Of a DNA stretch of 64,000 nucleotides, positions 10,591 to 50,100 are shown one piece after another. Every line of letters begins with the position of its first letter. Position 1 is the first letter of the stretch. The translations under genes and the position numbers were made by a program. Source of the stretch: Owenweeksia sp. Its GTDB lineage: Bacteria; Bacteroidota; Bacteroidia; Flavobacteriales; Schleiferiaceae. The DNA is taken from contig NZNV01000001.1 in assembly GCA_002695025.1 (NCBI GenBank), positions 124,001-188,000 on the forward strand, read 5' to 3'. Below the pieces are notes generated by a model that was not told where the DNA came from, searched no databases, and saw nothing but the letters and a program-made list of their open reading frames with translations.

Positions 10591-10761
10591 TATATTTTGC
10601 TTTTGGCTTGATCCAAAAGCAAACAAAAAAGCAAGGCTCCCAAAAAATAAAGCTCCTGCCAGTTGCCGAACCTAAGTTCGGCCGGGTGATTTCCGGAACT
10701 TCCCGGTCTCCCTAAGTTCCGGCTTACGTTAGGAATACTTTATTTTTTGAAGGCCGTTTCC
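10591..10761. repeat. Intergenic hairpin repeat, copy 2 (before hsdM)
   Basis: It is nearly identical to copy 1 at 9405-9586, with the hairpin at 10599-10620 and the same TTTGAAGGCCGTTTCC end, but it lacks about 11 bp in the middle (AGCGGGTCCGG region). Together with the hsdR remnant it forms the right-hand direct repeat around the secreted-protein gene. Confidence 0.85.
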
Positions 10762-10817
10762 TGGTGATGGGTATTTTACAGGAGAATATTTAAACTGCAA
10801 CAGCATTAAAACACTAC

Positions 10818-24190: not shown

Positions 24191-24273
24191 GAAAGTCAAA
24201 ACTAGGAGAGTGGAGGTGGGTGCAGGTACCCAATTATAACGCATTCGCATCCTGATAATTGACTAATTCATAA

Positions 24274-24291
24274 ATCCATAGAAGTAAGGAG
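24274..24291. promoter_or_regulatory. Operator-like dyad (variant site 5) between caspase B and TIR 1
   Basis: ATCCATAGAAGTAAGGAG; the left half is perfect and the right half has one mismatch. It lies 84 bp before caspase B (-) and 46 bp before TIR 1 (+). On the plus side it ends 21 nt before AATATTTG, the same spacing as at 17160. Confidence 0.5.
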
Positions 24292-24312
24292 AAGGACTCC
24301 CTTACTGCGTGC

Positions 24313-24320
24313 AATATTTG
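24313..24320 (+). promoter_or_regulatory. -7-like element AATATTTG for TIR 1
   Basis: One mismatch to TAnnTTTG, 17 bp upstream of the TIR 1 ATG and 21 nt from the dyad. It implies a very short 5' leader. Confidence 0.4.
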
Positions 24321-24336
24321 CTGGTAGCAAATACTA

Positions 24337-26500: not shown

Positions 26501-26554
26501 TTCTCCGATACATCTTCAACCCGCTCCTGAACCGAAATACTCTCAACAAGACTT

Positions 26555-27898: not shown

Positions 27899-27949
27899 CC
27901 TCTTAAATGTGTAATTGTGATGGACTCTTTTCCGCTAAATGGTACCTAT

Positions 27950-28840: not shown

Positions 28841-28841
28841 A

Positions 28842-29774
28842 TCAGTTCAAGTTAAGAGCAAAAATGATACGCAGGTTTTCATCCTCCAGGTACTTATCAA
28901 TATCCTTATCTTCCTTTACTACTCGGCAAACCGAGGTTTCTGCCCGTACTTCTATGATCTTAAGGGTTGCTATCGGCTGTTCATTGAGAATTCTATTGCC
29001 ACGGATACCGGTAAATTCCTGATCCAGGATCATTTTCAGTTTCAGCCCTTTCTCCAGACCTACATTACGGCCTCCTTCTATTAATATGTTTTTCACCTTT
29101 CTGGAGTTTCCCTCATTGGCAACTTTAAGAAAATAGAAACTGGAGAGGGAGGTGTTCAGTACCCATTTGAAGACTTCATCTGCAGAGTTATCTACGGCAT
29201 CAATCATTTTACCGCTTACCGAAGCCTCCAGCCTTTTGTCCATATTGTTTATCAGGTCTTGGCCATCATTCAAAAGTTTTTTACCAATATCTATCCCTAG
29301 ATCTACTCCAACATCAAGGTTGGAATAACTACTTCCGGTAAAACTCTGAGCGTGTAGTGTTTCTCCAGATTTTACATCGATATACTTTACCTCAAAATCA
29401 ACCCGAACCTGAGCATTATTGCTATCGATATAAAAGACTTCCGTATTGCGAATAAAACCGATCAATAGGAATTCAGCAGGGGTGCTATTACCAGCATGGA
29501 TAATCTCCTGTTCGATAAATTCTCTGCGTTTCATGGTTTCTATTTCGGCCTCCGCATTTTCCCTTTTAGGAATATCGATTATCCGGAACTGTTTACTCTG
29601 CACTAATCTGCGGGTCACGGCTTCGTATAAATCCTTAGAGAGCTTAAGGTTGTCCTTGTCCCCACTGTAGAACGGGCTAATACCAAGTGCGGGGGGAATA
29701 ATAATCTCCTGACCTTTTAAAGAGGCGTTCCATACAGTTGTTGTAATTAATAAGAGGATAGCTAATTGTCTCAT
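28842..29774 (-). CDS. Secreted CsgG-like protein
   Basis: Start chosen at 29774 (MRQLAILLLITTTVW), which gives a proper signal peptide; the longer frame to 29831 adds unrelated residues. The 310-residue product contains LGISPFYSGDKDNLKLSKDL, FRIIDIPKRENAEAEI, AEFLLIGFIRNTEVF and VDFEVKYIDVKSGETL, the CsgG core pattern. A C-terminal domain of about 110 residues (VKNILIEGGRNVGLEKGLKL, PIATLKIIEVRAETSVCRVV) resembles the small barrel found at the end of some CsgG/LpoB-like proteins. It heads a two-gene operon with the DUF6175-like gene. Two operator-like dyads lie 80 and 162 bp upstream of the start. Confidence 0.85.
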   Translation of the reverse strand: MRQLAILLLITTTVWNASLKGQEIIIPPALGISPFYSGDKDNLKLSKDLYEAVTRRLVQSKQFRIIDIPKRENAEAEIETMKRREFIEQEIIHAGNSTPAEFLLIGFIRNTEVFYIDSNNAQVRVDFEVKYIDVKSGETLHAQSFTGSSYSNLDVGVDLGIDIGKKLLNDGQDLINNMDKRLEASVSGKMIDAVDNSADEVFKWVLNTSLSSFYFLKVANEGNSRKVKNILIEGGRNVGLEKGLKLKMILDQEFTGIRGNRILNEQPIATLKIIEVRAETSVCRVVKEDKDIDKYLEDENLRIIFALNLN

Positions 29775-29853
29775 AAGCAATAAACTTAGTTGATAAGGAT
29801 TCAAAAATGTGTGAATTCTATTTTCAGGCAAACATTAGTAGTGTGGCTATTGA

Positions 29854-32175: not shown

Positions 32176-33702
32176 CTACCTGCTATAAACCAGGTCGCCA
32201 GGACTCATCCTACGTATTTTCAAAAAGAGGTAAGCAGCGACTCCTGTGATGGGGACTACAACAAACCAAATCACATGATCAATACTGAGGGATAAGCGAA
32301 ATATACTTTCATCCTGATGCATAGAATTGCCAAAACGTTCCAGTATAAGACGGTTAGTGTATATACCCAATAACTCGGCCATACTGAAACCAATAACAAA
32401 AAGAGGTATAATAATGGCCGTGGCAATGAGGGAGTATAATATCGCTATGAGCAAGTTAGACATCCCCAGGGCTTTCAGAGTGCCTAAGGCCACCGAATTA
32501 CGATCGATATGCACCACGATTAGGTTGGATATAACATAGATCATCAATACAATGGAAAGCAGGGTTAAAGCCTGAGACAGAAGGCTCATGAGCTTACTGA
32601 AAAGACCAAAATTCTTCATGCTTTCCAGTGCGCTCAATTCAGCTTCCAGTTCAAAACCATCTTGCAAAAATTCTGCACTTATTGCGTTGACAAAGGCTTG
32701 TATGGAGTCCAGTTCATTAAAATGTACTTCCAGGAAAGTGGCTGAATAGAGCCCATCAGACATGGTGCGGTGAAGACGGTGATAGTCATTAAACACATGA
32801 AAATAGGTGGCGCGTAAGCATTTTTCCAGGGATTCCAGACATTTTTTCTTACCGTTTTCCTCGGAAAAAGTCTTGTAGATAGATGAGCCGCTTTTAATAT
32901 TGTCATAACGTGTGGCCGGAGGGCCGGAAGAACCTTGCCTGCAAGGAGGGCACTTGTTTAAAACAGTTTTCAGACTATCCTGATCCACCCCCTCTGCAAA
33001 AATAATCGCGGAACTTTGAAAGCGCGGATTATCCGGGTCTAATACATCTTTTTCAAATTTGCGCAGCATGGCATAAAAAGCAAGGGGAGGGGCAAAGAGA
33101 TCGTTACCCCGGGGAAGGGTCTTTACAATTGCGGCAATCGGAAGGCTTACCGATTGCGAATCACTGTGCCAGTATTGTAAAAATCCTGGCCAGCTCGATT
33201 CATCATATCCTAGTTTTTTCAGGAAGCCTGAAGTCACCACCACAGACCAGGGCGAGGCCTGAAGATCTACTTCCTTGGTCGTAAGTAATAAATCACTTCC
33301 GTTTTCCCGCAATAGAAAGTCGTATAGATAACTGGAGGTATCAATTAAGCGAATATGCGCTCTTACTGCTTCACCACTCTGGGATTTAAAGTCATCAAAA
33401 ACCTCAGAAACCAGTCCATGAGTTTTAAAATCGAAACGGGATTTGGCCGTGCTGTCGTTCAAAAATTCTGCAACTTTGTTGTGAAATTTTGCCGAGATAT
33501 TATGGCTGGGGATATTGAGTTCCAGGAATTTTATGAATGGACTGTTCATCCGCTTGTATAAGAGCTCAGAACTTCCGGTATTGAGGCCTATGGAGCAAAA
33601 AGCTACGATAACCGTTACCAGCAGGATAATAAGTTGTGGCTTTTTGATCATAGCCATTAGCTCCGGAAAGAAAAAGGTGGATAAGAGAGACCGTATTTTC
33701 AC
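32176..33702 (-). CDS. ABC transporter permease, FtsX/MacB-like
   Basis: Start taken as the GTG at 33702 (VKIRSLLSTFFFPELMAMIKKP), 22 bp after the stop of the ATPase gene; the longer frame would overlap the ATPase by 170 bp and encodes no plausible protein. The 508-residue permease has one N-terminal membrane segment (about 25-45), a large extracytoplasmic domain (about 45-345, containing CPPC) and three C-terminal segments (about 370-395, 420-445, 470-495), the FtsX topology. MacB/Lol-type pumps use such permeases for mechanotransmission rather than simple transport. It is the last gene of the operon starting at 44287. Confidence 0.87.
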   Translation of the reverse strand: MKIRSLLSTFFFPELMAMIKKPQLIILLVTVIVAFCSIGLNTGSSELLYKRMNSPFIKFLELNIPSHNISAKFHNKVAEFLNDSTAKSRFDFKTHGLVSEVFDDFKSQSGEAVRAHIRLIDTSSYLYDFLLRENGSDLLLTTKEVDLQASPWSVVVTSGFLKKLGYDESSWPGFLQYWHSDSQSVSLPIAAIVKTLPRGNDLFAPPLAFYAMLRKFEKDVLDPDNPRFQSSAIIFAEGVDQDSLKTVLNKCPPCRQGSSGPPATRYDNIKSGSSIYKTFSEENGKKKCLESLEKCLRATYFHVFNDYHRLHRTMSDGLYSATFLEVHFNELDSIQAFVNAISAEFLQDGFELEAELSALESMKNFGLFSKLMSLLSQALTLLSIVLMIYVISNLIVVHIDRNSVALGTLKALGMSNLLIAILYSLIATAIIIPLFVIGFSMAELLGIYTNRLILERFGNSMHQDESIFRLSLSIDHVIWFVVVPITGVAAYLFLKIRRMSPGDLVYSR

Positions 33703-33724
33703 AAGGTTTGTTTTACAGATTATT

Positions 33725-34591
33725 TCAGGACAGCTCTTTGTTGGTGGCTGCATTAAACCAGCCTGATGCGGTTTTATGAAACACACTGTTTTCATCAATG
33801 AAACCGTAGCTATGCATTTTTCCGTTCCACTCCTTTTCTCTTTTTTGCAATACCACAATCCGGTCACCGTATTCCCTTGCCAGGGCAAGATCATGCGAAA
33901 CTATAATGGCCGTACCTTCTTTGGCTTTGATGTGATCTTTCAGTTGGGTCATAAGGTTTACGGCATTGGCATGATCCAGGTTACCGGTGGGTTCGTCCGC
34001 AAAGAGAATATCGTAGTCTATGATCATGGCCCGCACAAAAGCAAGCCGTTGCCTTTGTCCGCCTGAAAGACTACTGGCCGAGATCTTATTTTTAGTGATG
34101 CGGTTTACCGTGGCTTCCAGCTCCTTTTTTTCTTTACCGATGGCTTGTTTTCTAATGAAAATTTTTCGGAGCATATCCGTGGCCGATTTTTTAGCCGTGT
34201 TCAGATCATCGGCTTGCAGTACTCGACCGATGTAGGCATTCTGGTAGGCACTGAGCGTATTCAACATATTGGTGTTTTGGAAAATAAAGCTCAGGTGTTT
34301 TCTGCGAAAACCGGCCACCCCATTGCGAAAGGATTTCCATAATCGAAAGGCATCGTAAGTATGACCATCAATGAAGTAGTTAAATTCAGAATCTCCGTTG
34401 TTCTTAATAATATTATTCATCAGGCCAAGAGCTTCAAGGGCTGTACTTTTCCCCACTCCGGATTCTCCGATAAAGAAGTAAATGTTACCTTTTTCAATGT
34501 CTAAACTCAGTATCTCCAAAGCCGGTGCTTCCTCTTTGGGGTAGTGGCAATAGATGTTCCTGATTTTTACTATGAGTTCCTTAGTTTGCAT
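33725..34591 (-). CDS. ABC transporter ATP-binding protein (LolD/MacB type)
   Basis: A 288-residue ATPase with Walker A GESGVGKST (42-50), a Q-loop FIFQNTNM, signature LSGGQRQR (near 176), Walker B DILFADEPTG and H-loop VSHD. All motifs are intact. A C-terminal extension of about 45 residues (KREKEWNGKMHSYGF to the end) is longer than usual for LolD. It overlaps the upstream VWA gene by 11 bp and precedes the FtsX-like permease, so the three are co-translated. The transporter is probably powered to act on envelope or periplasmic partners encoded in the same operon. Confidence 0.95.
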   Translation of the reverse strand: MQTKELIVKIRNIYCHYPKEEAPALEILSLDIEKGNIYFFIGESGVGKSTALEALGLMNNIIKNNGDSEFNYFIDGHTYDAFRLWKSFRNGVAGFRRKHLSFIFQNTNMLNTLSAYQNAYIGRVLQADDLNTAKKSATDMLRKIFIRKQAIGKEKKELEATVNRITKNKISASSLSGGQRQRLAFVRAMIIDYDILFADEPTGNLDHANAVNLMTQLKDHIKAKEGTAIIVSHDLALAREYGDRIVVLQKREKEWNGKMHSYGFIDENSVFHKTASGWFNAATNKELS

Positions 34592-37100
34592 TACCCGGGA
34601 ATTTATCCAGTTGAACCCAGTAGTAAATAGAGTTATGCATTTTAAACTGGTCTTCCATGAGGTTATTCATGGAAAATCGTGGAATGGATTTGTTGAATTG
34701 GGAAATGAAATCATCGAGCTTGCTGTGTTTGGATTTTTCAATATTCCCTAGTTTTTCAGCGTGCAGGTCTCCGTAATGCCGGTCCAGGTCAAAAGGGAAT
34801 CCAAAAACTACGGTCCACAGCTCATCCAGGGTTTTGGTATTGACCACTTCCTCATTTTGTTCACCCAGGGCATTCATGGTCATTGTTTTCAGGTTATCGT
34901 AGAACTGCTTGCGGGCCTTCAAGTCTGTAGCATCAGGGTCAAACTTCCTGAACTGCCGCATGATATTGGAAACTTCGGTATGGGTTAAAAAAATCACGGG
35001 GGTAAAACATTCCTTTTTACCGTAAAAGCTCTTGCTGGTATAGCCGATCATGGCGTATTCCTTCACTTTATTGAAGAACTGTTCTATTTTATCACTGGAA
35101 AAGCCGTATTCCTCAAGCATGAGTTTCATGGCGTTTACTTCAGCCTGTACAAAGTGATCCGGGACTTCCACCTTTCCTTCCTTTACCACGGTTTGCCTTA
35201 CGGTAGTCTGCTGTTCCATAGCACGGAAATAATCATCCATGGCTTCCACGAGGTTAGATTCTAACTCAGTGAAGGGCATTTCACTGTTAGAGTCCGCAAA
35301 AATGTAACGCCCAAAGCCGGAGGTGACAAAATCCTGTTGAATTCCGGTTTGCTCATCCTGAAACTGAATAACCCAGGCATTTTTCCTGTCTTGCAGTTCC
35401 TTAAAGAGTGGTTTGAGCTTATCCTTTTCCTTGCGGCTGTTGGCCATAGAGCGTATATATTGATTGGCATCGCGATTAAAGTAGAGATAGGAGGGATCAT
35501 CACCGTAATACACCTGGAACGCAATTAAACTGGCATGATGTTGATTTAGGGCATTAACAACATCCTTCATTTGTAATCCCCTGGGATCTTGGCGGTAATT
35601 GGCCGCATCACCTATCAGAATTACAATGTTGCTTTCTTCTTTGCTAAAGTTGCAGTCTTCCATTCCTCTAATTAGTCCGTAGTATTGCGATTCGAACCTG
35701 GTTTTACCTTTACTGTCAAATTCACTGTTTTCCACAAACCCACTCACTTTGGCAATATCCTGGGGGCCATTGATAGCCAGAGGTTGGAAAATCTCATATT
35801 CTCCTTCATTATCCTCCTTATCCCGATAAAGAACTACGCCATAGTTTATCTTTTTATCCTTATAAAACTTATTTCTAAGCTCCATGATTTGTTCCAAGCC
35901 TTTGATAACCGATTGTTTGTAAGGTTCCATGCTGTGGGTGGCATCTACTACAAAAAGGATGTTTACGTTTTGCTTCAGTTTGCTATTTTCATCAAGTGTC
36001 TCCTCGATCTTAACGATTTCGGTTTCCCCGGTCATTACACCCTGGCTACCCATTACGGCCACTTTTACATTGGGTAACTCTCGGTTATATTGGAGTACCG
36101 GCATGCGCATTTGCAGTATGGGAGGCCGCTCTTTTTTTATCGTGTATTTGGCCACGGCTTTTTGCAATACATCGGTATGACCCCGGGTGTATTCATTCAG
36201 GTAATTTTGATTCATAAAAACCGGGATGGGTTCCTCTGATTTGTAGCCGTCAGGATTCCGTTTCTGGTCGTAGATATTGAAATCATCATGTACAATTTCA
36301 TAGCAATATCTCGTATCCCAGGGCGTTAATTTGGTGTTGGGCATCCACCCACTTACATCCTGGTTTATTTGGCGGATAGAAATGGTATTGTCCAGAATAT
36401 CGGACTTGGAAAGCAGTTGCATGCCATCTTGTTCCTTTAACACAAAGCGTATTTCCAAAGCGGTTTCAACCTCTCTTTTGTAGTGTTTATCCACTCGCGG
36501 GACAGCATAGAATTGATAGGTCTCCAGCTCTTTACCATCATTTCTGTCCAGTGCACTTTCCAAAGCTTTGAGTTGCGAATTGGTTTCTACCTTGATGAGT
36601 ACCAGGGCTTTTTTAGTGGTGGAAAAAGAATTGAGCTGTGCATGACTGTTGAGAATGAGATTCCTGGCGTGGATAAACCCCAGCTCCGTACATTCTTCCC
36701 GGTTACCAATTCTTTTCACGGAACTTACTTTCAGCCAATTGTTACTGTTTTCTACGATTCCCGTCACATAAAGCTTCTGCATGAAATCAAGCGTGGACTT
36801 GTTGATGGAGGTGGTGTCCGGCTTTGAGTAGATGGGATTATTAGCCCGGTCGCTGTAAACGATCCATTTGTTTTCGTCTTTTTTGGAATCTTTATACTGT
36901 AAAGTAAGCTCGGCCAGTTTATGAGTGCCTTCATATAAGCCTTCCATGGTTTCAGCCCTTACATACGATCGTAACTCGTCCGGGATGGCCAGGCAATCAC
37001 AGTCCCCTGCTTTTGTACTTATAGTACTAACCAAAAGTAAAAGTGTGCCGATGCAGGCAGCGGAAGAGCGTTTAATATAAGGTAAATTGATATTGGTCAT
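34581..37100 (-). CDS. Secreted SH3-like / von Willebrand A-domain protein
   Basis: An 839-residue exported protein with a signal (about 10-31), then a possible SH3b-like domain (about 60-150, LYVTGIVENSNNWLKVSS). A VWA domain (about 380-590) carries the MIDAS motif DATHS (from D386, Thr in place of the first Ser), plus GKTRFESQYYGL and NIVILIGDAAN. The last 230 residues are mostly helical. It should bind a protein ligand through a metal. It overlaps the upstream gene by 29 bp and the ATPase gene by 11 bp. VWA proteins often pair with ATPases as assembly or remodelling factors, but here the VWA is outside the cytoplasm, so contact with the ATPase must be through the FtsX-like permease. Confidence 0.87.
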   Translation of the reverse strand: MTNINLPYIKRSSAACIGTLLLLVSTISTKAGDCDCLAIPDELRSYVRAETMEGLYEGTHKLAELTLQYKDSKKDENKWIVYSDRANNPIYSKPDTTSINKSTLDFMQKLYVTGIVENSNNWLKVSSVKRIGNREECTELGFIHARNLILNSHAQLNSFSTTKKALVLIKVETNSQLKALESALDRNDGKELETYQFYAVPRVDKHYKREVETALEIRFVLKEQDGMQLLSKSDILDNTISIRQINQDVSGWMPNTKLTPWDTRYCYEIVHDDFNIYDQKRNPDGYKSEEPIPVFMNQNYLNEYTRGHTDVLQKAVAKYTIKKERPPILQMRMPVLQYNRELPNVKVAVMGSQGVMTGETEIVKIEETLDENSKLKQNVNILFVVDATHSMEPYKQSVIKGLEQIMELRNKFYKDKKINYGVVLYRDKEDNEGEYEIFQPLAINGPQDIAKVSGFVENSEFDSKGKTRFESQYYGLIRGMEDCNFSKEESNIVILIGDAANYRQDPRGLQMKDVVNALNQHHASLIAFQVYYGDDPSYLYFNRDANQYIRSMANSRKEKDKLKPLFKELQDRKNAWVIQFQDEQTGIQQDFVTSGFGRYIFADSNSEMPFTELESNLVEAMDDYFRAMEQQTTVRQTVVKEGKVEVPDHFVQAEVNAMKLMLEEYGFSSDKIEQFFNKVKEYAMIGYTSKSFYGKKECFTPVIFLTHTEVSNIMRQFRKFDPDATDLKARKQFYDNLKTMTMNALGEQNEEVVNTKTLDELWTVVFGFPFDLDRHYGDLHAEKLGNIEKSKHSKLDDFISQFNKSIPRFSMNNLMEDQFKMHNSIYYWVQLDKFPGNAN

Positions 37101-37674
37101 ACAGTTTGATTTTATCTCTTAAGGGGTGATTTAGTGACGTTTTTTTGTTAGACTCTTCCAGGGCATCGATGAACACTTTTACCGATACACCTTTTTTTAG
37201 CTTACCGCCTTCCATAAGAAGCCCGTGAGTCAGTAATATCCTTTCCAGGATGGTTTCGATATGATTTTCGTAACCGGTCACTTGTTCTGCGCCAAAAAAG
37301 AAATACAGTTCAACATCACCGTCCATCTTCAGGAACTTATCGCTTAACTTCAGTATTGTGTCCAGGTCTGCATTGGGGTTGGGGAGGCTTATGTTTTGGG
37401 CGGTACGTATCACTCTCTTGATTTCACTGGAGTATTCACCGGTTACATCTACCACGGGTGGAGTTCCACCCCTGCTCAGGAAAACCAGGAACTTCTGCTG
37501 TTTATCTGACCAATTATTATAAAGAGAATCGAGGTAGACATTAACAGAGGTACGATTTCCTTCACCGGCTATGTCCAGGTAAACTAGAGTCTCCTTCTGC
37601 CCTGATAGATTTCCGGCAATCAATTGTGTTAAGAGGATGCAGAACCCTATTTTTTTGAATAGACCAGTTTCCAT
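37072..37674 (-). CDS. Secreted protein of unknown function
   Basis: A 200-residue protein with an N-terminal signal (about 6-24, IGFCILLTQLIAGNLSGQ). The mature part has the alternating strand/helix pattern of an alpha/beta fold (KETLVYLDIAGEGNRTSVNV, KFLVFLSRGGTPPVVDVTG, DVELYFFFGAEQVTGYENHI). It may be a degenerate VWA-like or Rossmann-like domain, since an Asp-x-x-Gly sits after the first strand. No family is recognised. It overlaps both neighbours (28 bp with the lipoprotein, 29 bp with the VWA gene), so it is firmly part of the operon. Confidence 0.82.
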   Translation of the reverse strand: METGLFKKIGFCILLTQLIAGNLSGQKETLVYLDIAGEGNRTSVNVYLDSLYNNWSDKQQKFLVFLSRGGTPPVVDVTGEYSSEIKRVIRTAQNISLPNPNADLDTILKLSDKFLKMDGDVELYFFFGAEQVTGYENHIETILERILLTHGLLMEGGKLKKGVSVKVFIDALEESNKKTSLNHPLRDKIKLYDQYQFTLY

Positions 37675-38603
37675 CTTTTGCTATTTGCTTCTTCCAGTAT
37701 TTCGGGTCTTCCGATAAGCTTATACGTGGTGTTGTGGTCCAGGTGCTGATTGTAAAAGCGATTCTCCCAAACCGTTATTTCCTCTATTGGATTACCATCC
37801 ACCACGATCAGAGGGTTGGTGCCGACAAAGGAATTTCGAATAATGTCCTTGATGGCCAGCAAAGCTTCCAGGTCTTCCGGATTATCTCCAAAATCGCTAG
37901 CGTATTTGGCTAGAGCGGTTCTTAGCTCTTCTATATCATGTTCCGGCATATCACAAAAGGGTATTTTGGATTGCTTATTCATTTTAGAGCCTATGGTGTC
38001 CTGCCCTTCAATAGCTACCCACACATCCACCATTTTACCAGCCCTATCTTTGATATCCCACTGCAACTTCCTGTCTCTGTAGTCGTTTGATGCTTTGCCA
38101 TTAATGGATACCTGGTACTTTTTTTGGCCATTCCGCAAAAAGGAGGGAAGCTCAATAATCATCTGACAGCCGGAAAATCTCACCTTTATGTGGTGTGGCA
38201 TTATGGTGCAATCTTCTGACAATGAGTTTTTATGGTCTTGTAAACTAAAGAGGAAAGGTTCGGTTAGCGTATCCTTTAAAGGAGTATTCTTCCTATACGT
38301 TATTTTAAGCCGTACTTCACTGGCCGAAACGTCTTCCTCACAAAAAAAGAGCTGGCCGTTTTTGGAGTCCCACGCAAAGTTTTTTTTGCCGGAAGCATTT
38401 TTGATATCTTTTATATTGGACAGGTCGATAGCTCTTTCCTCGGCAGAGTCCAGTAATTCAAAGGCTTTTATATACAAGGCGTTATCACGTGTTTGTACTT
38501 CTACACGGGTGGCTATGTTTTTTTCACCACTTTCTCCTTTATCACAGCGGATGGCGATAAAAAGGATAAAAGTGAACAAGAGGTATGGTTTGAGTTTATT
38601 CAT
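37647..38603 (-). CDS. Lipoprotein of unknown function
   Basis: A 318-residue lipoprotein: signal MNKLKPYLLFTFILFIAIRC with Cys20 as the lipidation site, then DKGESGEK. The mature protein has beta-sandwich-like segments (VRLKITYRKNTPLKDTLTEP, HHIKVRFSGCQMIIELPSF) and a more helical C-terminal part with a segment VGTNPLIVVDGNPIEEITVW. The last resembles the plug-type VVDGxP motif seen in TonB-dependent receptors. The family is not recognised. It lies in the operon between the outer-membrane barrel and the overlapping secreted protein, consistent with a periplasmic or outer-membrane accessory role. Confidence 0.83.
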   Translation of the reverse strand: MNKLKPYLLFTFILFIAIRCDKGESGEKNIATRVEVQTRDNALYIKAFELLDSAEERAIDLSNIKDIKNASGKKNFAWDSKNGQLFFCEEDVSASEVRLKITYRKNTPLKDTLTEPFLFSLQDHKNSLSEDCTIMPHHIKVRFSGCQMIIELPSFLRNGQKKYQVSINGKASNDYRDRKLQWDIKDRAGKMVDVWVAIEGQDTIGSKMNKQSKIPFCDMPEHDIEELRTALAKYASDFGDNPEDLEALLAIKDIIRNSFVGTNPLIVVDGNPIEEITVWENRFYNQHLDHNTTYKLIGRPEILEEANSKRWKLVYSKK

Positions 38604-38618
38604 GGAAGTTGAACAGGT

Positions 38619-40190
38619 TTATAGTCCTACATAAATCTTTAGTCCTAAAGCATAAGATGCTAAAGTGAAGCGGGTATCGGTGCTGAGGCTGTAGATATCG
38701 GTAAAATCATTTCGTGTGGTGGTCAGGGCGGTGGGCGAAAACTCGGAATAGGCTTTCATGCTTTCATACCGGTAGGCAGCGGTGGCAAACAACCATTTGT
38801 TTAGTCTTAACTCAAGGGATACACCCGCCTGAAAAGAGTTAAACCCATCGATACTTAGTTCACTGTTGCGTGAAACCCGTTCATCGTTATACACATCATA
38901 GGCCTGTTCATACGCTTCACTGGTTCCGGTAATTTCGATGTTGAAATTTTCAGGCCCGTACAGGGCAGCATAGGTAGCTATGCCACTGGCCTCATAGTAA
39001 CTTTTGGTAATGGAACTCCTTTGATAAGCTATGCTTAAACCCACTTTCAAATATTTAGAAGCCTGATAATTGGTCAGCAGGCCCAATCCGTAAGAGCTCA
39101 TCGAAAAATTATGCGCTTCATGGAAATCCACCACTTTGATTTTGCGCTGATATTCATCACCGTCATTGTCGGTAGCGGTAAGGGTAGTCTTGTATTGATC
39201 AAAATGGTAGTTTCCGGTGTAATTCCTATTGGAAAGGGCCAGATAGGGGGAAATATAAAACCTGCCGAAGCGGTAAAGGTCATAGCCTAATCTCAAGCCG
39301 GTTCCACTGTAACTTAGCTCTCCGGTTATGGTATTGCCACTCTCATCGGTATTGATGGTGAAGCTCATCATGGGTGAAGTACCGTTCCCGTAACAGGGTT
39401 CAATAAAAAGGCGTTTTGATTTTATATTGATGGTGGGCTTGGCATAGTTTACAGTACCGTTTTCGGTGAGTTCGCGGGGATTGATAGCGAAGGTGGTACG
39501 GCCCAGGTAATCTTCGGAATACACGGTAACCTTGAGAATGCTATCTCTTTGTAAACCGCTTAGAACACCATATCCTCCCCTTTGTAATGTGATTTTTTTA
39601 CCGTTAATCAGCAACGCTTGCGGTGGATTTTCACTTTGCATGAGTTGCTTACGGTTAAGATGTATGACCAAATATTTTCCAGGCTCTTTTTTGTAATCCA
39701 CAGACCGGATGGTATAGCTTTCATTGCGTGGATCATGAACGATGGTATAGCGTAAATCCAGGGTGTCTTTGAATTGTATGCCTTCCGCATTGGTTACGGT
39801 TAAGGTTTTATGGGCATCGAGAAAAATTACCTGGCCTTTGGAGTCCCGTTCTCCCAGGCTTATATAATAGGGTCTGATGTTATCAACCGTAAGGGCTAGG
39901 GTTTTAGCTCCGTAACGGTTAAAAAGTTCAAGGTATTCGTCCAAACTTACCGGGGCTTTTAGCTTATTGGAGGGTAAGAATTCGTTGGCTATGGCTACAT
40001 CCCGGTCTTCAAAAAGATTCAGGAAACGGTATTTTTGGTTTTCATCGTGCAGACGATCCCTGACACTGAGTTCCTGGATCAATCTTAAGGACTCCAGCTT
40101 CATGACCTTTAGCTCATAAGAGGAATGTCCCTGACCTTGAGCCAAAAAGCTCACTATTAAACCAATGATTATGGATAGCGGTCTGACCAT
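38619..40190 (-). CDS. Outer-membrane beta-barrel protein
   Basis: A 523-residue protein with a signal peptide (1-19, LAQGQ). The N-terminal third is a periplasmic beta domain. From about residue 250 on there are repeated amphipathic strands (GTGLRLGYDLYRFGRFYISPYLAL, YLKVGLSIAYQRS, SLELRLNKWLFATAAYRYESM, SYALGLKIYVGL) typical of an outer-membrane barrel of 10-12 strands. No specific family is recognised. It starts two bases after the T9SS protein's stop and is followed 15 bp later by the lipoprotein. It could anchor the large Ig-repeat protein encoded just upstream. Confidence 0.83.
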   Translation of the reverse strand: MVRPLSIIIGLIVSFLAQGQGHSSYELKVMKLESLRLIQELSVRDRLHDENQKYRFLNLFEDRDVAIANEFLPSNKLKAPVSLDEYLELFNRYGAKTLALTVDNIRPYYISLGERDSKGQVIFLDAHKTLTVTNAEGIQFKDTLDLRYTIVHDPRNESYTIRSVDYKKEPGKYLVIHLNRKQLMQSENPPQALLINGKKITLQRGGYGVLSGLQRDSILKVTVYSEDYLGRTTFAINPRELTENGTVNYAKPTINIKSKRLFIEPCYGNGTSPMMSFTINTDESGNTITGELSYSGTGLRLGYDLYRFGRFYISPYLALSNRNYTGNYHFDQYKTTLTATDNDGDEYQRKIKVVDFHEAHNFSMSSYGLGLLTNYQASKYLKVGLSIAYQRSSITKSYYEASGIATYAALYGPENFNIEITGTSEAYEQAYDVYNDERVSRNSELSIDGFNSFQAGVSLELRLNKWLFATAAYRYESMKAYSEFSPTALTTTRNDFTDIYSLSTDTRFTLASYALGLKIYVGL

Positions 40191-40192
40191 AG

Positions 40193-43100
40193 TTATTCGA
40201 TTATGATCTTTTGCGTGTGATAATGTCCTTTGGCCTTGATCATCAATAGGTAGTAGCCCGGGATGGCTTGCTGTAAGTGAATCTTCTGTTCGTTTTTGTC
40301 AAAAGTGATCGGTATAGTAATGCCTATTGAGTTAAACAGCCGGATTGCGGAAATAGCATCCATATCTCCTTTTAAGTTGAACACATCGGTGCCCGGGTTG
40401 GGGTAAACCTCGTATAACGGAGTCTCAGGAGCAGGAGGCAATTCACGTGTATTTATCAACCTTTGGGGCAGGGAAGGCCAAAAGCTGAAGGTGTAACATT
40501 CTGTTGTATCGGTTGCTTTTATGACGTAATACACGTATCTCGAAGTATCAATAGTCGGATAAAAGTGGTATCGAATGGTGTCCCATAAGGACACGTTTTC
40601 CAGGTTTCCGTACCAACGATCCAAGCGGCCCCAGCGGTAGTAAACCGTTTTGTTGGTAATACCCGCTGTCCTGTCGATATCACATAACAGTATCGAAGTT
40701 CCTTTTTTCCGGATTTCCGTGGTGTCCGGAGCGATGGTATTGATCACCGTTACTTCGCGGCTAACATCAATATTACACTGCTCTGCATGGGTGTTGTCAG
40801 TTATACGGAGGACCAGATTGCCGGTTCCGGTCTGTGAAGCCTTTGGAATAAAGGCAAAGGTTGAGTCTCCCAGGGGCTTGATGGTAATTCCCGACAGTGG
40901 TGAGGCTGTTTCCCAATACCATACGTAAGAGTAACTCTCTTTGTCCGTTTTATTGAGTTTAAAAATCACATTTCGCTGATTGCGGCATAGTTTTACCGTG
41001 CTTCCAGCCTGATAGAGATTTGGGTCAGTTACTTGCAGTTCCACCGTTTCATCCTGGTAAGGAGCGGGTAAAACGGTAACGGCTATTCTTTTGGTTAGCA
41101 CAGTATCCCCGCAAAGGGAATCTACCACTCCGAGCCGATAATAGTTATTACCCGGTTTTTGATTTGCGGGAATATTCAACGTTAATGAGTCGGATGAGGG
41201 AATAGTTATGAAGCCACTTGGTAAAGAAGTTGAATCTACCTGCCAGAATCTTTGGTAATCCAAGTTTTGATGAGCTTCGGGGTAGCCGCCTGCGGGTAAG
41301 GTATCGGTTTCCAGGACCAGGCCCTGACCGTAACAGATGGCAATACTATCGCTATTGGGGCTGCTACGTCTGGCCTTTACAGAACCAGGGCTTAGCTCAT
41401 CATACACATAGATGTTAAATATACCGGAGCTATCCTTATTGCCGCATTTATCTTCCAAAACGGCCTGGAAGTAATACGTTGAACCACCGAGCAATTTGCC
41501 AATAGAACTACCCGGAAGAATGTTTGTAGAACCCGAAGAATTGAATAATACGGAATCTTTTATGGTTGAAAAGCTGCTGTCGGCAGAATAGAACCAAGCA
41601 ACCCGGTAGTCGTTATCAAAATTACCTCCGGCCGCTTCTATCCAAAGCTTGTCAAAGTTGGTATTATGACAAATAGAATCAGAACGTTTGCCGTTTATTC
41701 CTGATATGCCGGAATTATAAATGGTAGGCAAAGAATACGTTTCGATCTTCAGGCTGTCACTGTAAAGCGCGGTCCCACATCGCAAAGAGTTGGATCTTAA
41801 GCGATAGTAAATAGCGGTATCGGGTAAGAGGTTAGTATTAAAAACATAAGCCTGAGGTGCTGTGCCACTGCTGAGATCCATCCAGGTGTTGGTTCCGGCA
41901 AACTTTCTTTGCCAAGTATAATTAAATTGACCGTTCCCTCCACTAGCTATTGTGGTTATCGGGATTGTTTGAGGAAGACTATTGCTGCAGATCAGGCGAG
42001 AGGCAGTGTCTATTTCGGCCCGGTTCACCGGTGGGTAAAGGGTTAGCTTAATGCTATCCGTTTCCACTACCGCGCAATCGTCAATCACCTGCAATTTGTA
42101 ATAATAGGTGCCGGGTTGCAGCACTCCGTTATGATCAATAAACAAAGAGGCGTTGTGCGCACCAGTTCCCGTTAAGGGCTGAAAACTACCCGTGGCGGTT
42201 CTTCTCAACCATTGGTACTGATAGGCGGTAAAATCATAACCCGATTTACCCCCAGCGGGTAACTGGTCAAAAGTGAGGCTAAGGCTTTCGCCCGTACAAA
42301 GGGCAGTGTCTTTAGCGGAAGTAGAACCATATACTTGCAATGTGCCGCCCTGTAGTGAATCATAAACAATGGCCAGGAAAGTATCCGAGATGGCAGATTG
42401 GCTACAATCATCGGTTACCACCACCCGGTAGTAATTTTCAGGATCTTTAAGATTGCTAAGTCCGGCCAGTAGCACGGATGAATCCAATGCTCCGTGGATG
42501 GTATTAAAGGACAGGCCATCCGAAGAATACTGCCAGTTATAGTGAAAATTGCCATCACCCTCACTTGCCAAAACCGTAAGTGAATCCAGACTTTGGCCAT
42601 AGCAGATAATCAGGCTATCCTGGAAGGGTTGGCTTTTAACTCCGGTGACAGAACCTAATTGAATCTGCGGAAAAGTATATAGCGTTACCGGATCACTTAA
42701 TACGCTATCCTTGCAACGGGGACAGTAAACCTTTAGGCGGTAATGCAGCGTAGTATCAGGGCTGAATTCCGATATACTGGAATTGGACGAATTAAAGCTG
42801 AAAGTGTCTGGATTGGTTGAAGTATTTCCTGCTGCTATCCAGTTAATAAGGTCCGGGGATTTTTCCCATTGGTAAACAAATTGACCACTTCCTCCGCTGG
42901 GGAGCTGGCTTATGGTGATAGATGCAGTTGGAAAATTTCCGGGGCAAAAGATCGTATCGGTAAGGTTGATGGAAGGTCTTCGCAATGTATCATAGGCCAT
43001 CACCTTAACACTATCTGTTAAAGCAATTCCGCAACTGTCTTGTACTTCCAGCCTGTAATAATAAGTGCCCGCAGAAAGGCTGCTATCGTTGATGATTTGC

Positions 43101-44287
43101 AGAGAGTCCGAGTTAGCCTGTAAACCCTGGACAGGGGAATAGTTGCCGGAAATGGTTTTTCTGAGCCATTGAAATTTATAGTTTCGGGAAGGAGAATCGC
43201 CCCCATAGCCCCCTGGTGCAGAAACCTGAGGCACCAGAGCAATGCTTTCACCAATACAGATGTTGGTATCTTTTCTCGATGTTGTATTCTGCACTTTTAT
43301 AGTGCCGGCTTCCAGTGAATCGTAAACCAAAACGGTTAACGGAGCAGAAGTAAAAGTTTGTCCGCACCCATCGGAAGCGATCACGCGGAAGAAGTTCTGC
43401 GGGTTTTTAAGGTTGTCCAGACCACTGCTTAAAATAAGGCTATCAGCGCAGCCATTGATATCCGCATAAAGGCTTCCATTAGTTGAGTATTGCCATTGGT
43501 AATGGTAATTACTATCCCCTCCGCTGGCATTTATCCTCAAGGGAGGAAGGGAACTGCCAAAGCAAAGGGATAAAGTATCATTAATACTAAGTCCGTTGGT
43601 ATCGGTAAGTGAACCGGATGTTAGGCTATCATAAGCATGCAGGACTACGGGTTTACTGAAAAGTTCGCTTCCGCATAGATTGGAGGTTGCTTTAAGGCGA
43701 TAATATTTTACAAGTCCGGCAACAAGACCATCGGTAAAAATATATGGTGAAGGGGTGTTGTGTGATGAGCCTATATCCTGCCAATTCTGGTTGGTAACTG
43801 AATCTTGCCACTGATAAATAAAGTCATTAAATGCACCTTGAGCTGCCTGGCTAATAAAGAGATTCTCTGGAATTTGAGCCGGACATATAAAGGATGTTGG
43901 AGTATTTAGTACAGGGGGGCTGAGACTATCGGAGGTAGTAAGATAAATTGTTATTGCCGCCACAAGGTTTTGAGAAGCCGTACCCACGGAATCGTATAAC
44001 TTTAAGGTGAGACTTTCTGTACCGGGCCATTTAAAGGATATTTTGATTTCCTTAGTAGAATCTTGTTGTAAGGAATCTGTTGGGGTGAATAGCCAATAAC
44101 CAGTAAGGTCGGAATTATGACTTGTAGAGTCTGACAACGTCAATAAATCACCCGGGCAACTAAAAAGAGTGTCCATGGTATTTATGATTTCACCATTAGC
44201 ATACAAGGATATCTGAAGTGATTGAGCCTGCATACATGTAAAGGAGTAAATACTGAGGAATATTATTTTGGATAATAGTAGTTTCAA
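40193..44287 (-). CDS. T9SS-secreted Ig-like repeat surface protein
   Basis: A 1364-residue protein with a signal peptide (about 1-21). It has about nine Ig/PKD-like repeats of roughly 110-140 residues, each with YQWQ or FQWLRK strands, a YYRL strand and an AYDSL/VYDSL boundary, with conserved Cys (DSCG, DDCS, DKCG). The C-terminal sorting domain (about 1290-1364) has YEVYPNPGTDVFNL, IRLFNSIGITIPI and GYYLLMIKAKGHYHTQKIIIE, the type A T9SS signal. It should be exported through the outer membrane and attached to the cell surface. It is the first gene of the seven-gene operon reaching 32176. An exact TAnnTTTG box and an operator-like dyad lie upstream. Confidence 0.92.
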   Translation of the reverse strand: MKLLLSKIIFLSIYSFTCMQAQSLQISLYANGEIINTMDTLFSCPGDLLTLSDSTSHNSDLTGYWLFTPTDSLQQDSTKEIKISFKWPGTESLTLKLYDSVGTASQNLVAAITIYLTTSDSLSPPVLNTPTSFICPAQIPENLFISQAAQGAFNDFIYQWQDSVTNQNWQDIGSSHNTPSPYIFTDGLVAGLVKYYRLKATSNLCGSELFSKPVVLHAYDSLTSGSLTDTNGLSINDTLSLCFGSSLPPLRINASGGDSNYHYQWQYSTNGSLYADINGCADSLILSSGLDNLKNPQNFFRVIASDGCGQTFTSAPLTVLVYDSLEAGTIKVQNTTSRKDTNICIGESIALVPQVSAPGGYGGDSPSRNYKFQWLRKTISGNYSPVQGLQANSDSLQIINDSSLSAGTYYYRLEVQDSCGIALTDSVKVMAYDTLRRPSINLTDTIFCPGNFPTASITISQLPSGGSGQFVYQWEKSPDLINWIAAGNTSTNPDTFSFNSSNSSISEFSPDTTLHYRLKVYCPRCKDSVLSDPVTLYTFPQIQLGSVTGVKSQPFQDSLIICYGQSLDSLTVLASEGDGNFHYNWQYSSDGLSFNTIHGALDSSVLLAGLSNLKDPENYYRVVVTDDCSQSAISDTFLAIVYDSLQGGTLQVYGSTSAKDTALCTGESLSLTFDQLPAGGKSGYDFTAYQYQWLRRTATGSFQPLTGTGAHNASLFIDHNGVLQPGTYYYKLQVIDDCAVVETDSIKLTLYPPVNRAEIDTASRLICSNSLPQTIPITTIASGGNGQFNYTWQRKFAGTNTWMDLSSGTAPQAYVFNTNLLPDTAIYYRLRSNSLRCGTALYSDSLKIETYSLPTIYNSGISGINGKRSDSICHNTNFDKLWIEAAGGNFDNDYRVAWFYSADSSFSTIKDSVLFNSSGSTNILPGSSIGKLLGGSTYYFQAVLEDKCGNKDSSGIFNIYVYDELSPGSVKARRSSPNSDSIAICYGQGLVLETDTLPAGGYPEAHQNLDYQRFWQVDSTSLPSGFITIPSSDSLTLNIPANQKPGNNYYRLGVVDSLCGDTVLTKRIAVTVLPAPYQDETVELQVTDPNLYQAGSTVKLCRNQRNVIFKLNKTDKESYSYVWYWETASPLSGITIKPLGDSTFAFIPKASQTGTGNLVLRITDNTHAEQCNIDVSREVTVINTIAPDTTEIRKKGTSILLCDIDRTAGITNKTVYYRWGRLDRWYGNLENVSLWDTIRYHFYPTIDTSRYVYYVIKATDTTECYTFSFWPSLPQRLINTRELPPAPETPLYEVYPNPGTDVFNLKGDMDAISAIRLFNSIGITIPITFDKNEQKIHLQQAIPGYYLLMIKAKGHYHTQKIIIE

Positions 44288-44403
44288 GACTCTTCTTTTG
44301 AATTTCCAGATCAGTTTTCAGTATATGAATGGCTTTTCCATCCCGGCAAGGGACATGGTATTTGCCTTTCCCATTACTTATGTTGATTTTTAATAGATAT
44401 AAA

Positions 44404-44411
44404 CAAATTTA
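44404..44411 (-). promoter_or_regulatory. -7 promoter element TAAATTTG for the T9SS/VWA/ABC operon
   Basis: Exact TAnnTTTG on the minus strand, 117 bp before the start at 44287. The dyad at 44456-44473 ends 44 nt upstream, the same distance as at the peptide gene promoter. Confidence 0.6.
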
Positions 44412-44455
44412 TATTGAGTCCAATCGGTGTATATAGAGAGTGATGTGGATTTTAT

Positions 44456-47106: not shown

Positions 47107-50100
47107 ATGGAATATCAACCGTTACTCCGCAGTATTTCCTGCTTTTTCCTTGTTTTATATTCATTTCTGGGTCATGCTCAAACTCTGCAATTAGGTAGTG
47201 GTACCTCTATAACGGGTACCCAGGAGGCCTCTCCCGTTAATATTTACTACCGCAGCATGCACATGCAGATCGTATACCGTGCTGCAGAGCTGAATGCCGC
47301 AGGTGTTTTTTCGGGGAAACTGACTGAGCTGGGCTTTTACATTGAAAACGCTCCAATCCATAACTTGCCGGATTTTACCATCTCCGTAGGGCATACTTCG
47401 GCCAATGATGCTTCTTCGCACATTGCTGCCCCTTTGAAGCAGGTTTATAAGCGTTCCGCTTATTCGCCTTTAGCGGGCGGCTTTGATATGCTGAGCCTGG
47501 ACAGCGTGTTTGATTGGAACGGCACGGATAATATTGTTGTGGACGTTTGCTTTGATCGCGTATTCGACTATACTTCCACCGGAAGGGTAAGGTATTACAA
47601 TGATGGAAGTAATAATGCAGGCTTTACCCGGAGCGATGGTTCTGACCAATGCGGAATACCGGTCTCTTCAACCACCAACAACAAACCACAGGTACAGATG
47701 ACCTTTTTACCGGACGTGGCCAATAATGCCGGTGTGGTTTCCACCAACATCACAGATATTACCTGTGCCGGATCATCAGCTGTTAAAGCTACTGTAGGTA
47801 ACTTCGGTAATAACCAGATTGATAGCCTGATGATAGGCTGGGAAGTGAATGGTGTGGCTCAAAACCCGGTAAAATACACCAGTATGCTGGATACCTTATT
47901 GGGCAGTGGCTCTCACACCGCTGAGGTAAGTCTGGGTAACTATAATTTTATTTCCGGGGTAGCCTATAACCTTACCGTTTATACCTATCAGCCCAATGGC
48001 CTGGCTGATGCCCAGACTTCCAATGACAGCGTGGAGGTGAGTACTACCGTAGGTTTGGGTGGTAATTACACCATTGGTGGAGTAGGCGCAGACTACGGGA
48101 GCTTTACCGCAGCCGTTAATGACCTGATCGCTAAAGGAATTTGTGGTACCACCACTTTCCAGGTGGCAGCAGGAACCTATTTTGAGCAAATTTCATTACC
48201 ACAGATTGAGGGTGCCGGTCCTGGTTCAGAGATCATTTTTGAAAGTGTTGCCCTGGACAGTAGCACAGTTACTTTATCCAACAATTCCGCTACGTTCTCC
48301 AGCAATTACACCCTCCGTTTTAACGGGGCGGGTTATGTAAGCTTCCGTCACATGGGCATTGCCTCCAATAATGCTACTTATGACCGGGTAGTTTATTTTG
48401 AAGGTGGTTCCAACCACATCACTTTCCACAACAGCGTCATTAAAAACGTAGATGTTGCCAGTCCTTATAATTATCAGTTGGTGGAGGTTAATAGTGCAGC
48501 AGAATGTGATTACCTGGAATTCAGCCACAGCTATTTCCTGAATGGTTACTCCGGAATTTATAACAACGGTAGTGATGCCGATCATTTTACCATTACCCAT
48601 AACCAGTTCATCAACCAGCGCTACGATGGTGTCTATCTTTATGGAGCCAATTTTGTGACCATAGATGATAACCTGATCAATACCAACTCAACCAGCTCTT
48701 TCATTGCTATTGAGCTGAGGTATTGTGACAGTACCCTTTCCGTGCAGCGCAACCACATTATGAACGTAGAAGGCGGGCAGGGTATTAACCTGGATTATTG
48801 CGATGCCACCGCAGCGCAGCCTGCACGGGTGGCCAATAACTTTATCCATCTCAACAGTGCCAGCAGTTCCGCGGAAGGTATTTATATATTGGGCTCGCTG
48901 AATGTGAATGTGGTCTTCAATACTGTGAACCTGGTCAGCACCAACACTAATAACATTGGTTTGCATTTGAGTGGAGGCGGTGCGATACACCTTCTCAATA
49001 ACAACATTGCGGTTAAGGGTGGTGATGCGCTGTACGTGCATTCCGGACTAAGTATTGATCAATCGGACTTCAATAACTTCTACAATGCCAATGGCGATGT
49101 AGGGTACTGGGAAGACGAAGTAAAAACCCTGTCCGATCTTATAGCCGCTTCCGGGAAGGATAGCAACTCCATCTCCGAGCCACCTTATTTTTACAACGAT
49201 ACTTCCTACCAGAGTGCCCAGGTGGCACTTAACAACAATGGAAGCCCGGTAAGCGGAATTACCACCGATATTGAAGGTGAAACGCGCGATGCTTCCAATC
49301 CGGATATCGGAGCCGATGAATTTTCTCCTACTTCCCAGGATGCCGGGGTGTATGCGCTTGTGGTACCCGAAATGCCTTTTGCAGCGGGTAGCCTGCCGGT
49401 AAAAGCGGTGATCCGTAATTTTGGCGGGGTCACTCTCACCAGTGCTACCATTAACTGGAGTGTGAATGGTGTGGCGCAAAGTGCCGTAAACTACAATGGT
49501 TCATTAAATACCGGAGATACGGCCTGGGTTTTATTGGGTAACGTAAACTTTGCCGAGACCACGGTTTACAATCTTGAGGCTTATACCTCCATGCCCAATG
49601 GTGGTGCCGATGCCCTGGCAGTCAATGATACGGCTTTTGTTGGTCCCATAACTCCTGCATTAGCTGGCACCTACACCATAGGTGGTACTACTCCTGATTT
49701 TACCAGCTTTACCGCTGCTGCGGATATCCTGAACCTGGGTGGTATCCGCGATCATGTATTCTTTGATGTGCGTAGCGGTACCTATTCCGAACGCCTCGAG
49801 TTTACCCGTTTCCCCACGCTCAACGTTTCCGATACGGTTACCTTCCGCTCTGAAGCAATGGATAGCGCAGCGGTAACACTCAATGCCGGCTATACCAATT
49901 CTTCCGAGAATTACGTGATCCGTATCAACGGTAGCCAGCGTATGAGCTTTGAACATCTTACCATCGAGAACACCAGCGCCAATTCCTATAGCCGCGTGCT
50001 GTACCTGGATTCCAGTGCGGCTTATATTACCCTGGATAATTGTGCATTGATATCCGGTTCTACCAGCAGCTCATTAACCAGTGTGGTATACGTCTACAAC

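What the first reader, a model, noticed from the sequence alone, without database searches (positions are those of the whole stretch)
32176..44287. Seven-gene envelope operon joining a T9SS Ig-repeat protein to a VWA protein and an FtsX-type ABC transporter
The genes overlap or nearly touch from the surface protein (40193-44287) through barrel, lipoprotein, secreted protein and VWA protein to ATPase and permease. The products span outside, outer membrane, periplasm and inner membrane, like a trans-envelope machine. An exported VWA protein next to a MacB/FtsX-type pump is an unusual pairing, and the operon carries the shared dyad and a -7 box.
Basis: partly seen in the sequence, partly recalled or inferred. 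Interest (0 to 1): 0.62.

Follow-up and report, generated by a model that had tools for sequence, protein, structure and literature searches.

The report
T6SS-like envelope machine without the weapon
Seven neighbouring genes in a Bacteroidota bacterium look like a device spanning the whole cell envelope; one of its core proteins is related to the membrane base of a bacterial injection weapon (the type VI secretion system), yet key parts of that weapon were not found in this genome, so the device may hint at where that base came from.

Summary
The seven minus-strand genes are real and their order is conserved. The VWA protein (34581-37100) is a homologue of TssR, a component of the Bacteroidota type VI (T6SSiii) membrane complex, but the T6SS markers TssC, TssF and TssN were not found in this genome. 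Of 17 ABC-linked TssR loci examined (seven families, two classes), the ATPase gene is adjacent in 17 and the FtsX-type permease visible in 16. Of 16 such genomes tested, 14 lack all three markers. Eight T6SS-linked TssR loci lack the ABC pair. Intermediates exist: in three loci of two other families gene 3 is TssP itself, and one genome (G725) carries the surface-protein, barrel, TssP, small-protein and TssR genes inside a T6SSiii locus. In the main tree T6SS TssR forms one clade, with ABC-linked forms on both sides. Best reading: a surface-to-cytoplasm relay powered by an FtsX-type ABC ATPase, related to and possibly ancestral to the T6SSiii membrane complex. Five relatives, not this genome, also carry a kinase of one family. 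Homology and synteny are shown; mechanism and direction of evolution are inferred.

The parts
40193..44287 (-). Gene 1: 1364-aa surface protein, PKD-like repeats, T9SS type A C-terminal signal
   Evidence: K319L-like_PKD 4.4e-11, Por_Secre_tail 8.6e-9; TTG start
38619..40190 (-). Gene 2: 523-aa exported protein, perhaps an outer-membrane barrel in its C-terminal part
   Evidence: only a sub-threshold OMP_b-brl match, residues 354-479, 13.1 bits against a cut-off of 28.7; conserved position
37647..38603 (-). Gene 3: 318-aa envelope protein at the tssP position; N-terminal anchor ambiguous, then an Ig/FN3-like part and an alpha/beta C-terminal domain
   Evidence: conserved position; AlphaFold2 model, mean pLDDT 75.0, residues 133-218 Ig/FN3-like; no sequence relation to TssP found
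37072..37674 (-). Gene 4: 200-aa secreted protein, alpha/beta by a low-confidence model
   Evidence: no Pfam family; profile homologous to the equivalent gene of other families, hhalign 97%; model pLDDT 56.8
34581..37100 (-). Gene 5: 839-aa exported TssR homologue with a VWA domain that carries a DxTxS motif
   Evidence: TssR_VWA 5.6e-15 and TssR N-barrel 1.3e-9, both over cut-off; profile aligned with T6SSiii TssR, hhalign 99.1%
33725..34591 (-). Gene 6: 288-aa ABC ATPase
   Evidence: ABC_tran 4.6e-20; GESGVGKST, LSGGQRQRL, ILFADEPTGNLD
32176..33702 (-). Gene 7: FtsX-type permease, 508 aa from GTG 33702
   Evidence: FtsX 4.5e-6; hydropathy: one N-terminal hydrophobic region, about 325-340 aa, then three more (overlapping segments merged for the window)
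44397..44414 (.). AT-rich dyad upstream of gene 1 that contains a -7-like TAAATTTG; function unproven

Best explanation
The operon encodes a trans-envelope complex related to the T6SSiii membrane complex but, in this genome, without the sheath, baseplate and TssN hub that were tested for. A T9SS-exported Ig-repeat protein would face the outside; a barrel-like protein would sit in the outer membrane; gene 3, the small gene 4 protein and a TssR homologue would form the periplasmic part; [quoted passage not shown] The most likely job is contact or adhesion sensing, or repositioning of the surface adhesin, by mechanical transmission rather than transport. In relatives the cytoplasmic side can be a Ser/Thr kinase, PP2C phosphatase and FHA proteins; no orthologue of that kinase was found in the window's genome, so its output is unknown. 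Shown: homology, gene order, no hit for the T6SS markers, kinase co-occurrence. Inferred: physical complex, direction of signal, ligand, output.
For: TssR identity: Pfam over cut-off, hhalign 99.1% over 414 columns of the N-terminal part and VWA. Synteny: 17 of 17 ABC-linked TssR loci have the ATPase next, 16 of 17 the permease (L017 ends first). T6SS-free: TssC, TssF and TssN not found in 14 of 16 ABC-linked genomes tested, the window's included; TssC found in 6 of 6 T6SS control genomes, TssF and TssN in 3 of 3. FtsX-like topology by hydropathy. T9SS signal in 6 of 6 surface proteins scanned, with differing repeats. Kinase full-length in 5 of 88 family genomes, all 5 operon bearers (hypergeometric 5.4e-7 ignoring phylogeny). 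TssP is gene 3 in L096-L098, and T6SS TssP co-purifies with TssR (PMC10781749, passages).
Against: No physical interaction was tested and no co-fold was run. The window's own genome and its congener G003 lack the kinase. Gene 3 of the window's family shows no sequence relation to TssP. The barrel is only weakly supported. Gene 1 could be an unrelated T9SS cargo. In G767 and G646 the same kind of operon may serve a T6SS. In G602 the second gene has a T9SS tail rather than a recognised barrel, and genes 2-4 of G602/G716 show no detectable relation to the others; in G815 no Ig or barrel gene was recognised. The T6SSiii TssR profile that finds the window protein gave no hit at 1e-3 for L018, the window's own genus, although the window-type profile does.
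Confidence: 0.5

Rival explanations
1. Orphan remnant: the operon descends from a complete T6SSiii; the sheath, baseplate and TssN were lost, and the ABC pair and surface protein were added or kept for a new use.
For: G767 and G646 have both the operon and T6SS genes, while G469 and G669, of the same genus as G767, have the operon without the T6SS markers; T6SSiii is described as frequently transferred, lost, or both (PMC10781749, section 16). The VWA motifs are also degenerate in the six ABC-linked rows of f36, f75 and f77, so they do not separate the two contexts cleanly.
Against: DxTxSM with GDxxN is kept in 9 of 9 Flavobacteriales ABC-linked rows and in none of the T6SS rows, and loss is easier than regain; the ABC link reaches another class, G815; with MIDAS columns dropped, outgroup plus T6SS held as one clade is rejected only at p-AU 0.040.
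Confidence: 0.25
2. MacAB- or Lol-like export or assembly machine: the ABC pair moves a lipoprotein, peptide or the surface protein itself across the envelope.
For: The ATPase's best NCBIfam matches, all far under their cut-offs, include LolD, FtsE and MacB, with PhnC first; a barrel-like protein is encoded in the operon (sub-threshold).
Against: No MacA or TolC family hit in the seven proteins; the surface protein has a T9SS signal of its own; the TssR relative is a structural part of the membrane complex in T6SSiii (PMC10781749).
Confidence: 0.15
3. FtsEX-like control of cell-wall enzymes at the site of contact.
For: FtsX-type topology; an M48-type peptidase gene follows the permease in L013 (PF01435 3.2e-24), and similar genes stand at that place in L014 and L015.
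Against: No wall hydrolase recognised in the window operon; a profile of these three M48 genes hit nothing at 1e-3 in the other loci scanned.
Confidence: 0.07

Closest known systems
T6SSiii membrane complex TssNQOPR (PMC10781749)
   Same: TssR homologue; TssP homologue as gene 3 in three loci of two other families; same order of gene 3 before TssR, with gene 4 between them
   Different: ABC pair, T9SS surface protein, barrel-like and small secreted genes added; TssN, sheath TssC and baseplate TssF not found in the window's genome
Type VII (FtsX/MacB/LolCDE-type) ABC systems
   Same: permease with four hydrophobic regions and a large periplasmic part; separate or fused ATPase with Walker A and signature motifs
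   Different: the constant partner is a TssR protein; none of the papers listed by my searches is about such a pairing, as far as titles and abstract starts show
TagQRST-PpkA-Fha-PppA pathway of Pseudomonas H1-T6SS
   Same: ABC ATPase-permease with envelope partners; a Ser/Thr kinase of one family in five relatives, with PP2C and FHA genes beside it in the three whose locus is intact (L013, L016, L014/L062), and another kinase-PP2C-FHA set in G125
   Different: nothing among the seven proteins recognised as TagQ or TagR (no dedicated search); kinase not found in the window's genome; no T6SS target there

Membership tests
TssR family | TssR N-barrel and VWA domains over Pfam cut-off | tested here: met
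   38.5 bits over 25.7 and 55.6 over 25.7
TssR family | TssR C-terminal domain (PF20781) | tested here: inconclusive
   not listed for the window protein at E up to 1, but over cut-off in ABC-linked L134, 35.6 bits over 25.7
T6SSiii | sheath TssC (PF17541) in the genome | tested here: not met
   no match in the window's genome; found in controls G105 and G379
T6SSiii | baseplate TssF | tested here: not met
   no match in the window's genome; found in G105, G630, G576
T6SSiii membrane complex | TssN hub | tested here: not met
   no match in the window's genome; found in G105, G630, G576
T6SSiii membrane complex | TssP partner | tested here: not met
   gene 3 of the window's family not related to TssP by hhalign, and no TssP-profile hit among window ORFs; met in L096-L098. 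A relation visible only in structure is not excluded
T6SSiii membrane complex | TssO and TssQ | tested here: inconclusive
   no profile hit at 1e-3 among window ORFs; whole genome not searched with them
Type VII ABC | FtsX domain; four hydrophobic regions with a large periplasmic part after the first; Walker A and signature motifs | tested here: met
   (hydropathy, not a structure)
MacAB-TolC pump | MacA adaptor and TolC | tested here: inconclusive
   no such family among the seven proteins; the rest of the genome not searched
TagQRST-PpkA pathway | kinase of the relatives' family in the genome | tested here: not met
   no match at E up to 1e-20 in G000; other kinases not searched
T9SS substrate | type A C-terminal signal | tested here: met
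   Por_Secre_tail 36 bits over 27; TIGR04183 33.2 over 23
anti-phage defence | PADLOC model match beyond generic ATPase | tested here: not met
   of the seven proteins only the ATPase matched, over part of its length, to models such as mad3 (1.7e-25) and ATPase-type families

The most novel reading that the evidence does not exclude
The operon is a living relative of the envelope machine from which the T6SSiii membrane complex was built: an FtsX-type ABC relay with a surface adhesin and a TssP-TssR periplasmic core, which a T6SS tail adopted (intermediates G767, G646 and G725) before the ABC pair, adhesin, barrel and small protein were dropped.
Probability: 0.4. Interest if true: 0.92.

Novelty: new variant of a known kind. 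Interest (0 to 1): 0.78.

Why it matters
The 2024 study that defined the T6SSiii membrane complex states that no membrane-complex homologues are detected outside T6SS loci (abstract) and that its origin is hard to identify because no independent locus encodes this set of genes (section 16) (PMC10781749). Here TssR occurs at 17 loci with an ABC pair, and 14 of 16 such genomes tested lack the T6SS markers. TssP together with TssR occurs at three of these loci; one of the three genomes (G469) is without the T6SS markers. This is not a complete TssNQOPR set, so the paper's narrower statement about complete complexes stands. It gives specific genes and loci with which the origin of the complex, and the power source of a possible new envelope relay, can be tested.

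Tried and rejected
Gene 3 of the window's family as TssP: rejected at sequence level (hhalign 1.1-3.0%); its model suggests a comparable domain order (Ig-like parts, then an alpha/beta domain), but I could not fold TssP for comparison. The pdb and pdb_via searches with the gene 3 model gave only common Ig/FN3 arrangements (best Z 6.8 over 75 residues; no Foldseek E of 0.001 or less); I conclude nothing from families that are not listed. Gene 4 was not fold-searched because its model has pLDDT 56.8. Gene 4 related to TssR or TssP: no (0.8% and 0.1%). No PDB sequence matched the window TssR homologue (E up to 1) or the A1 profile (E up to 0.01); TssP matches PKD domains of collagenases and others. 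Defence system: no support. The one genome-contig scan returned the same six other genomes, now with record titles.

Limits on counts. The VWA-only proteins of about 365-455 aa (G013, G014, G016, G019 and others) were treated as outgroup, not as operon bearers. Rows dropped: G153's truncated TssR from all trees; G125's TssR is split over two frames in the assembly and only the longer frame was used; two outgroup sequences (minus-strand loci missed by the script), eight. The three T6SS-marker searches do not cover G815; only about 57 kb of its contig was scanned with the T6SS profiles, without a T6SS hit. In some searches at most two candidates per genome were scored, so a second TssR in G767 or G646 is not excluded; I checked contig C24 of G767 from base 2001 to its end, and C86 whole and C100 from base 22001 to its end of G646. 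The profiles contain the window and L013-L018 sequences, so their E-values on those loci are not independent; (BLASTP) is. Kinase: 15 of 88 genomes matched at E up to 1e-20, 5 of them over the full model; the other 10 matched the kinase domain only (G085 with a 235-aa open frame that may be a fragment). Tree caveats: several branches over 1.5, long branches meeting, and adding G815 and G238 leaves the order near the T6SS clade open. In the VWA-only trees the T6SS rows are not one clade: G669's ABC-linked row falls among them. The clade tested by AU was chosen. hhalign pairwise probabilities are not database-calibrated.
Full report
What is there. Seven minus-strand genes between 32176 and 44287 form a tight run (spacings). 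The permease is best read from GTG 33702 (508 aa): relatives begin there, and the ATG at 33894 would overlap the ATPase by 170 nt. Pfam gives a T9SS C-terminal signal and PKD-like repeats for gene 1, nothing over cut-off for genes 2, 3 and 4, TssR_VWA and the TssR N-terminal barrel for gene 5, ABC_tran for gene 6 and FtsX for gene 7.

The VWA protein is a TssR homologue. Both Pfam TssR domains are over cut-off. A profile of the window protein and six relatives aligns with T6SSiii TssR over 414 columns, hhalign 99.1%, E 2e-18. A profile of six T6SSiii TssR proteins finds the window protein at 2.6e-34; the same profile did not reach 1e-3 for L018 of the window's own genus, nor for L057 (a partial gene) and the longer frame of L056. 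T6SSiii TssR is one of five membrane-complex proteins, TssNQOPR, and the periplasmic part of TssR pulls down that of TssP (PMC10781749; abstract, passages and sections 11, 16 and 33 seen).

No T6SS found here. VipB (PF05943), TssC (PF17541), TssF and TssN gave no match in the window's genome, which is 99.99% complete by the tool's figure. VipB was found in the E. coli control genome; TssC, TssF and TssN in the Bacteroidota T6SS controls. Other T6SS genes were not searched genome-wide.

Synteny. In the window's family, 7 of 88 genomes (own included) carry a full-length relative; 4 more matched only over part of the VWA domain. All seven genes are found in the same order in L013, L014, L015 and L018 by BLASTP; L016 has six, with a 187-aa ORF at the place of the small gene; L017 is a short contig with only TssR and ATPase hit by BLASTP and ORFs for genes 3 and 4 at their places. 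In L015 the Ig gene is split over two ORFs, and in L013 it runs to the contig end. In L018, from the window's own genus, ATPase and permease are fused. The records of these six relatives are titled Cryomorphaceae, Flavobacteriales or Bacteroidetes MAGs. Wider samples: in the order, 395 genomes, three more carriers (G181, G125, G153) beyond the family. In the class, 395 genomes, six ABC-linked carriers outside the order (G767, G646, G469, G669, G602, G716). In the phylum, 395 genomes, one from another class (G815), where TssR, ATPase and permease are adjacent. The samples overlap and must not be added; I looked at the surroundings of the strong matches only, not of every match. Over the 17 ABC-linked loci examined the ATPase follows TssR in 17 and the permease is visible in 16. 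The eight T6SS-linked loci (L058, L059, L095, L102-L105, L135) have TssP before TssR or one gene away and no ABC pair.

T6SS presence in carriers. Of 17 ABC-linked genomes 16 were tested; 14 lack TssC, TssF and TssN, and G767 and G646 have all three. Completeness of the 14 is 70 to 100%, so absence in G125, G153, G181 and G015 (70-89%) is weaker.

Intermediates. Gene 3 of L096, L097 and L098 is TssP (profile E 4.2e-31, 8.7e-22, 1.5e-28; hhalign of these three with T6SSiii TssP including that of L095, 99.7%). In G767 and G646 the T6SS genes on the contigs examined include TssN and a TssQ-like gene but no tssP or tssR; a PKD-repeat protein of 824 aa there also matches the TssP profile and is not counted. 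In G725 the contig reads tssG-N-K-Q-O-Ig-barrel-tssP-small-tssR-PAAR with no ABC pair (PAAR named from its sequence, not from a search), and its barrel protein is homologous over full length to that of L096-L098 (99.9%). The small gene 4 is homologous between the window's family and the L095-L098 set (97%). The barrel link between those sets is weaker (89%, 113 columns), and L055's second gene gives 18%.

Direction. In a tree of 22 TssR proteins the six T6SS forms are one clade (100/99), next to G725 (98/97), then ABC-linked forms (G646 with G669; G767 with G469); the other half of the tree is 11 ABC-linked forms without T6SS markers (100/99). With G815 and one divergent T6SS form added the order near the T6SS clade is open and the seven T6SS rows have 78/89, though the half that holds T6SS plus the f36/f75 ABC forms keeps 91/98. 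With VWA outgroups and MIDAS columns removed, seven of eight outgroup rows attach on the ABC side and one falls inside it; holding outgroup plus T6SS as one clade is rejected at p-AU 0.040, with lnL 19.9 lower, which is borderline. The DxTxSM plus GDxxN motifs occur in 9 of 9 Flavobacteriales ABC-linked rows. They are degenerate in the six other ABC-linked rows of the class (DGSERL, DGSDKV, DGSEKL, a gapped DG-SQ, EGTRQL twice), G815 has DGSASM without the second Asp, G725 has DGGNSM with GNTGN, and the seven T6SS rows have DISAPN, DVSAPN, DGGSSM twice, EGSPAM, DGGDQT and ENNGST. Loss of such motifs is easier than regain. Together these favour, without proving, ABC-linked forms as older.

Kinase module. 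In L013, L016, L056 and L014/L062 the operon lies beside FHA, PP2C and Ser/Thr kinase genes. Full-length orthologues of the L013/L016/L062 kinase occur in 5 of 88 family genomes, all operon carriers (in G015 and G011 on another contig); the window's genome and G003 have none; 10 further genomes matched the kinase domain only. Chance for the overlap is 5.4e-7 if genomes were independent, which they are not. The arrangement recalls TagQRST-PpkA-Fha-PppA of Pseudomonas, where outer-membrane damage is sensed (PMC11881912 and PMC6565705, passages).

Mechanism. FtsX-type ABCs typically transmit conformational work to periplasmic partners without moving substrate across the inner membrane (PMC12646458, passages). 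The permease has that topology by hydropathy and the ATPase its motifs. The conserved partner is TssR. I infer a relay between a T9SS-displayed surface protein and the cytoplasm. The surface repeats differ among carriers while the T9SS signal is kept in 6 of 6 scanned (window, L018, L095, L096, L097, L099), as expected of an adhesin with changing specificity. Physical contacts and output are not shown.

In print. Searches of the library for TssR, TssP, T6SSiii, TssN, TssO, membrane complex, von Willebrand, ABC transporter and type IX secretion listed no paper that, from titles and abstract starts, describes a TssR-ABC locus; of the papers listed I read only parts of PMC10781749. The library lacks most subscription papers and preprints.

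Noticed in passing
L143 with L095 (G725): A T6SSiii locus with a T9SS-tailed surface protein and a barrel gene inserted between tssO and tssP.
   Followed up: partly
L018:10889-13450; L096, L097, L098, L101: ATPase and permease fused into one ORF in one member of the window's genus and in two other families; the window has them separate, so fusion probably arose more than once.
   Followed up: no
L055:4259-7505: Tubulin_2 (2.7e-39) and trypsin-like genes downstream of the operon in G181.
   Followed up: no
L013:4155-8375; similar genes in L014 and L015: M48 peptidase, FHA-ABC2 transporter and LEA_2 genes continue the run after the permease.
   Followed up: partly
window 47107-62199 (+): 5030-aa ORF with beta-helix and CARDB domains and a T9SS tail just under cut-off, 26.8 bits against 27.
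   Followed up: no
window 23423-29831: Caspase-domain gene, two TIR-like genes with sub-threshold matches, FlgO-like (sub-threshold), LpoB and DUF6175 genes close together.
   Followed up: no
window 6159-13537 (+): Type I restriction-modification genes with higher G+C than the immediate flanks.
   Followed up: no
L060:8505-9644 and similar in G014, G016, G019: Separate VWA proteins of about 380-400 aa; the one scanned has a T9SS tail.
   Followed up: partly
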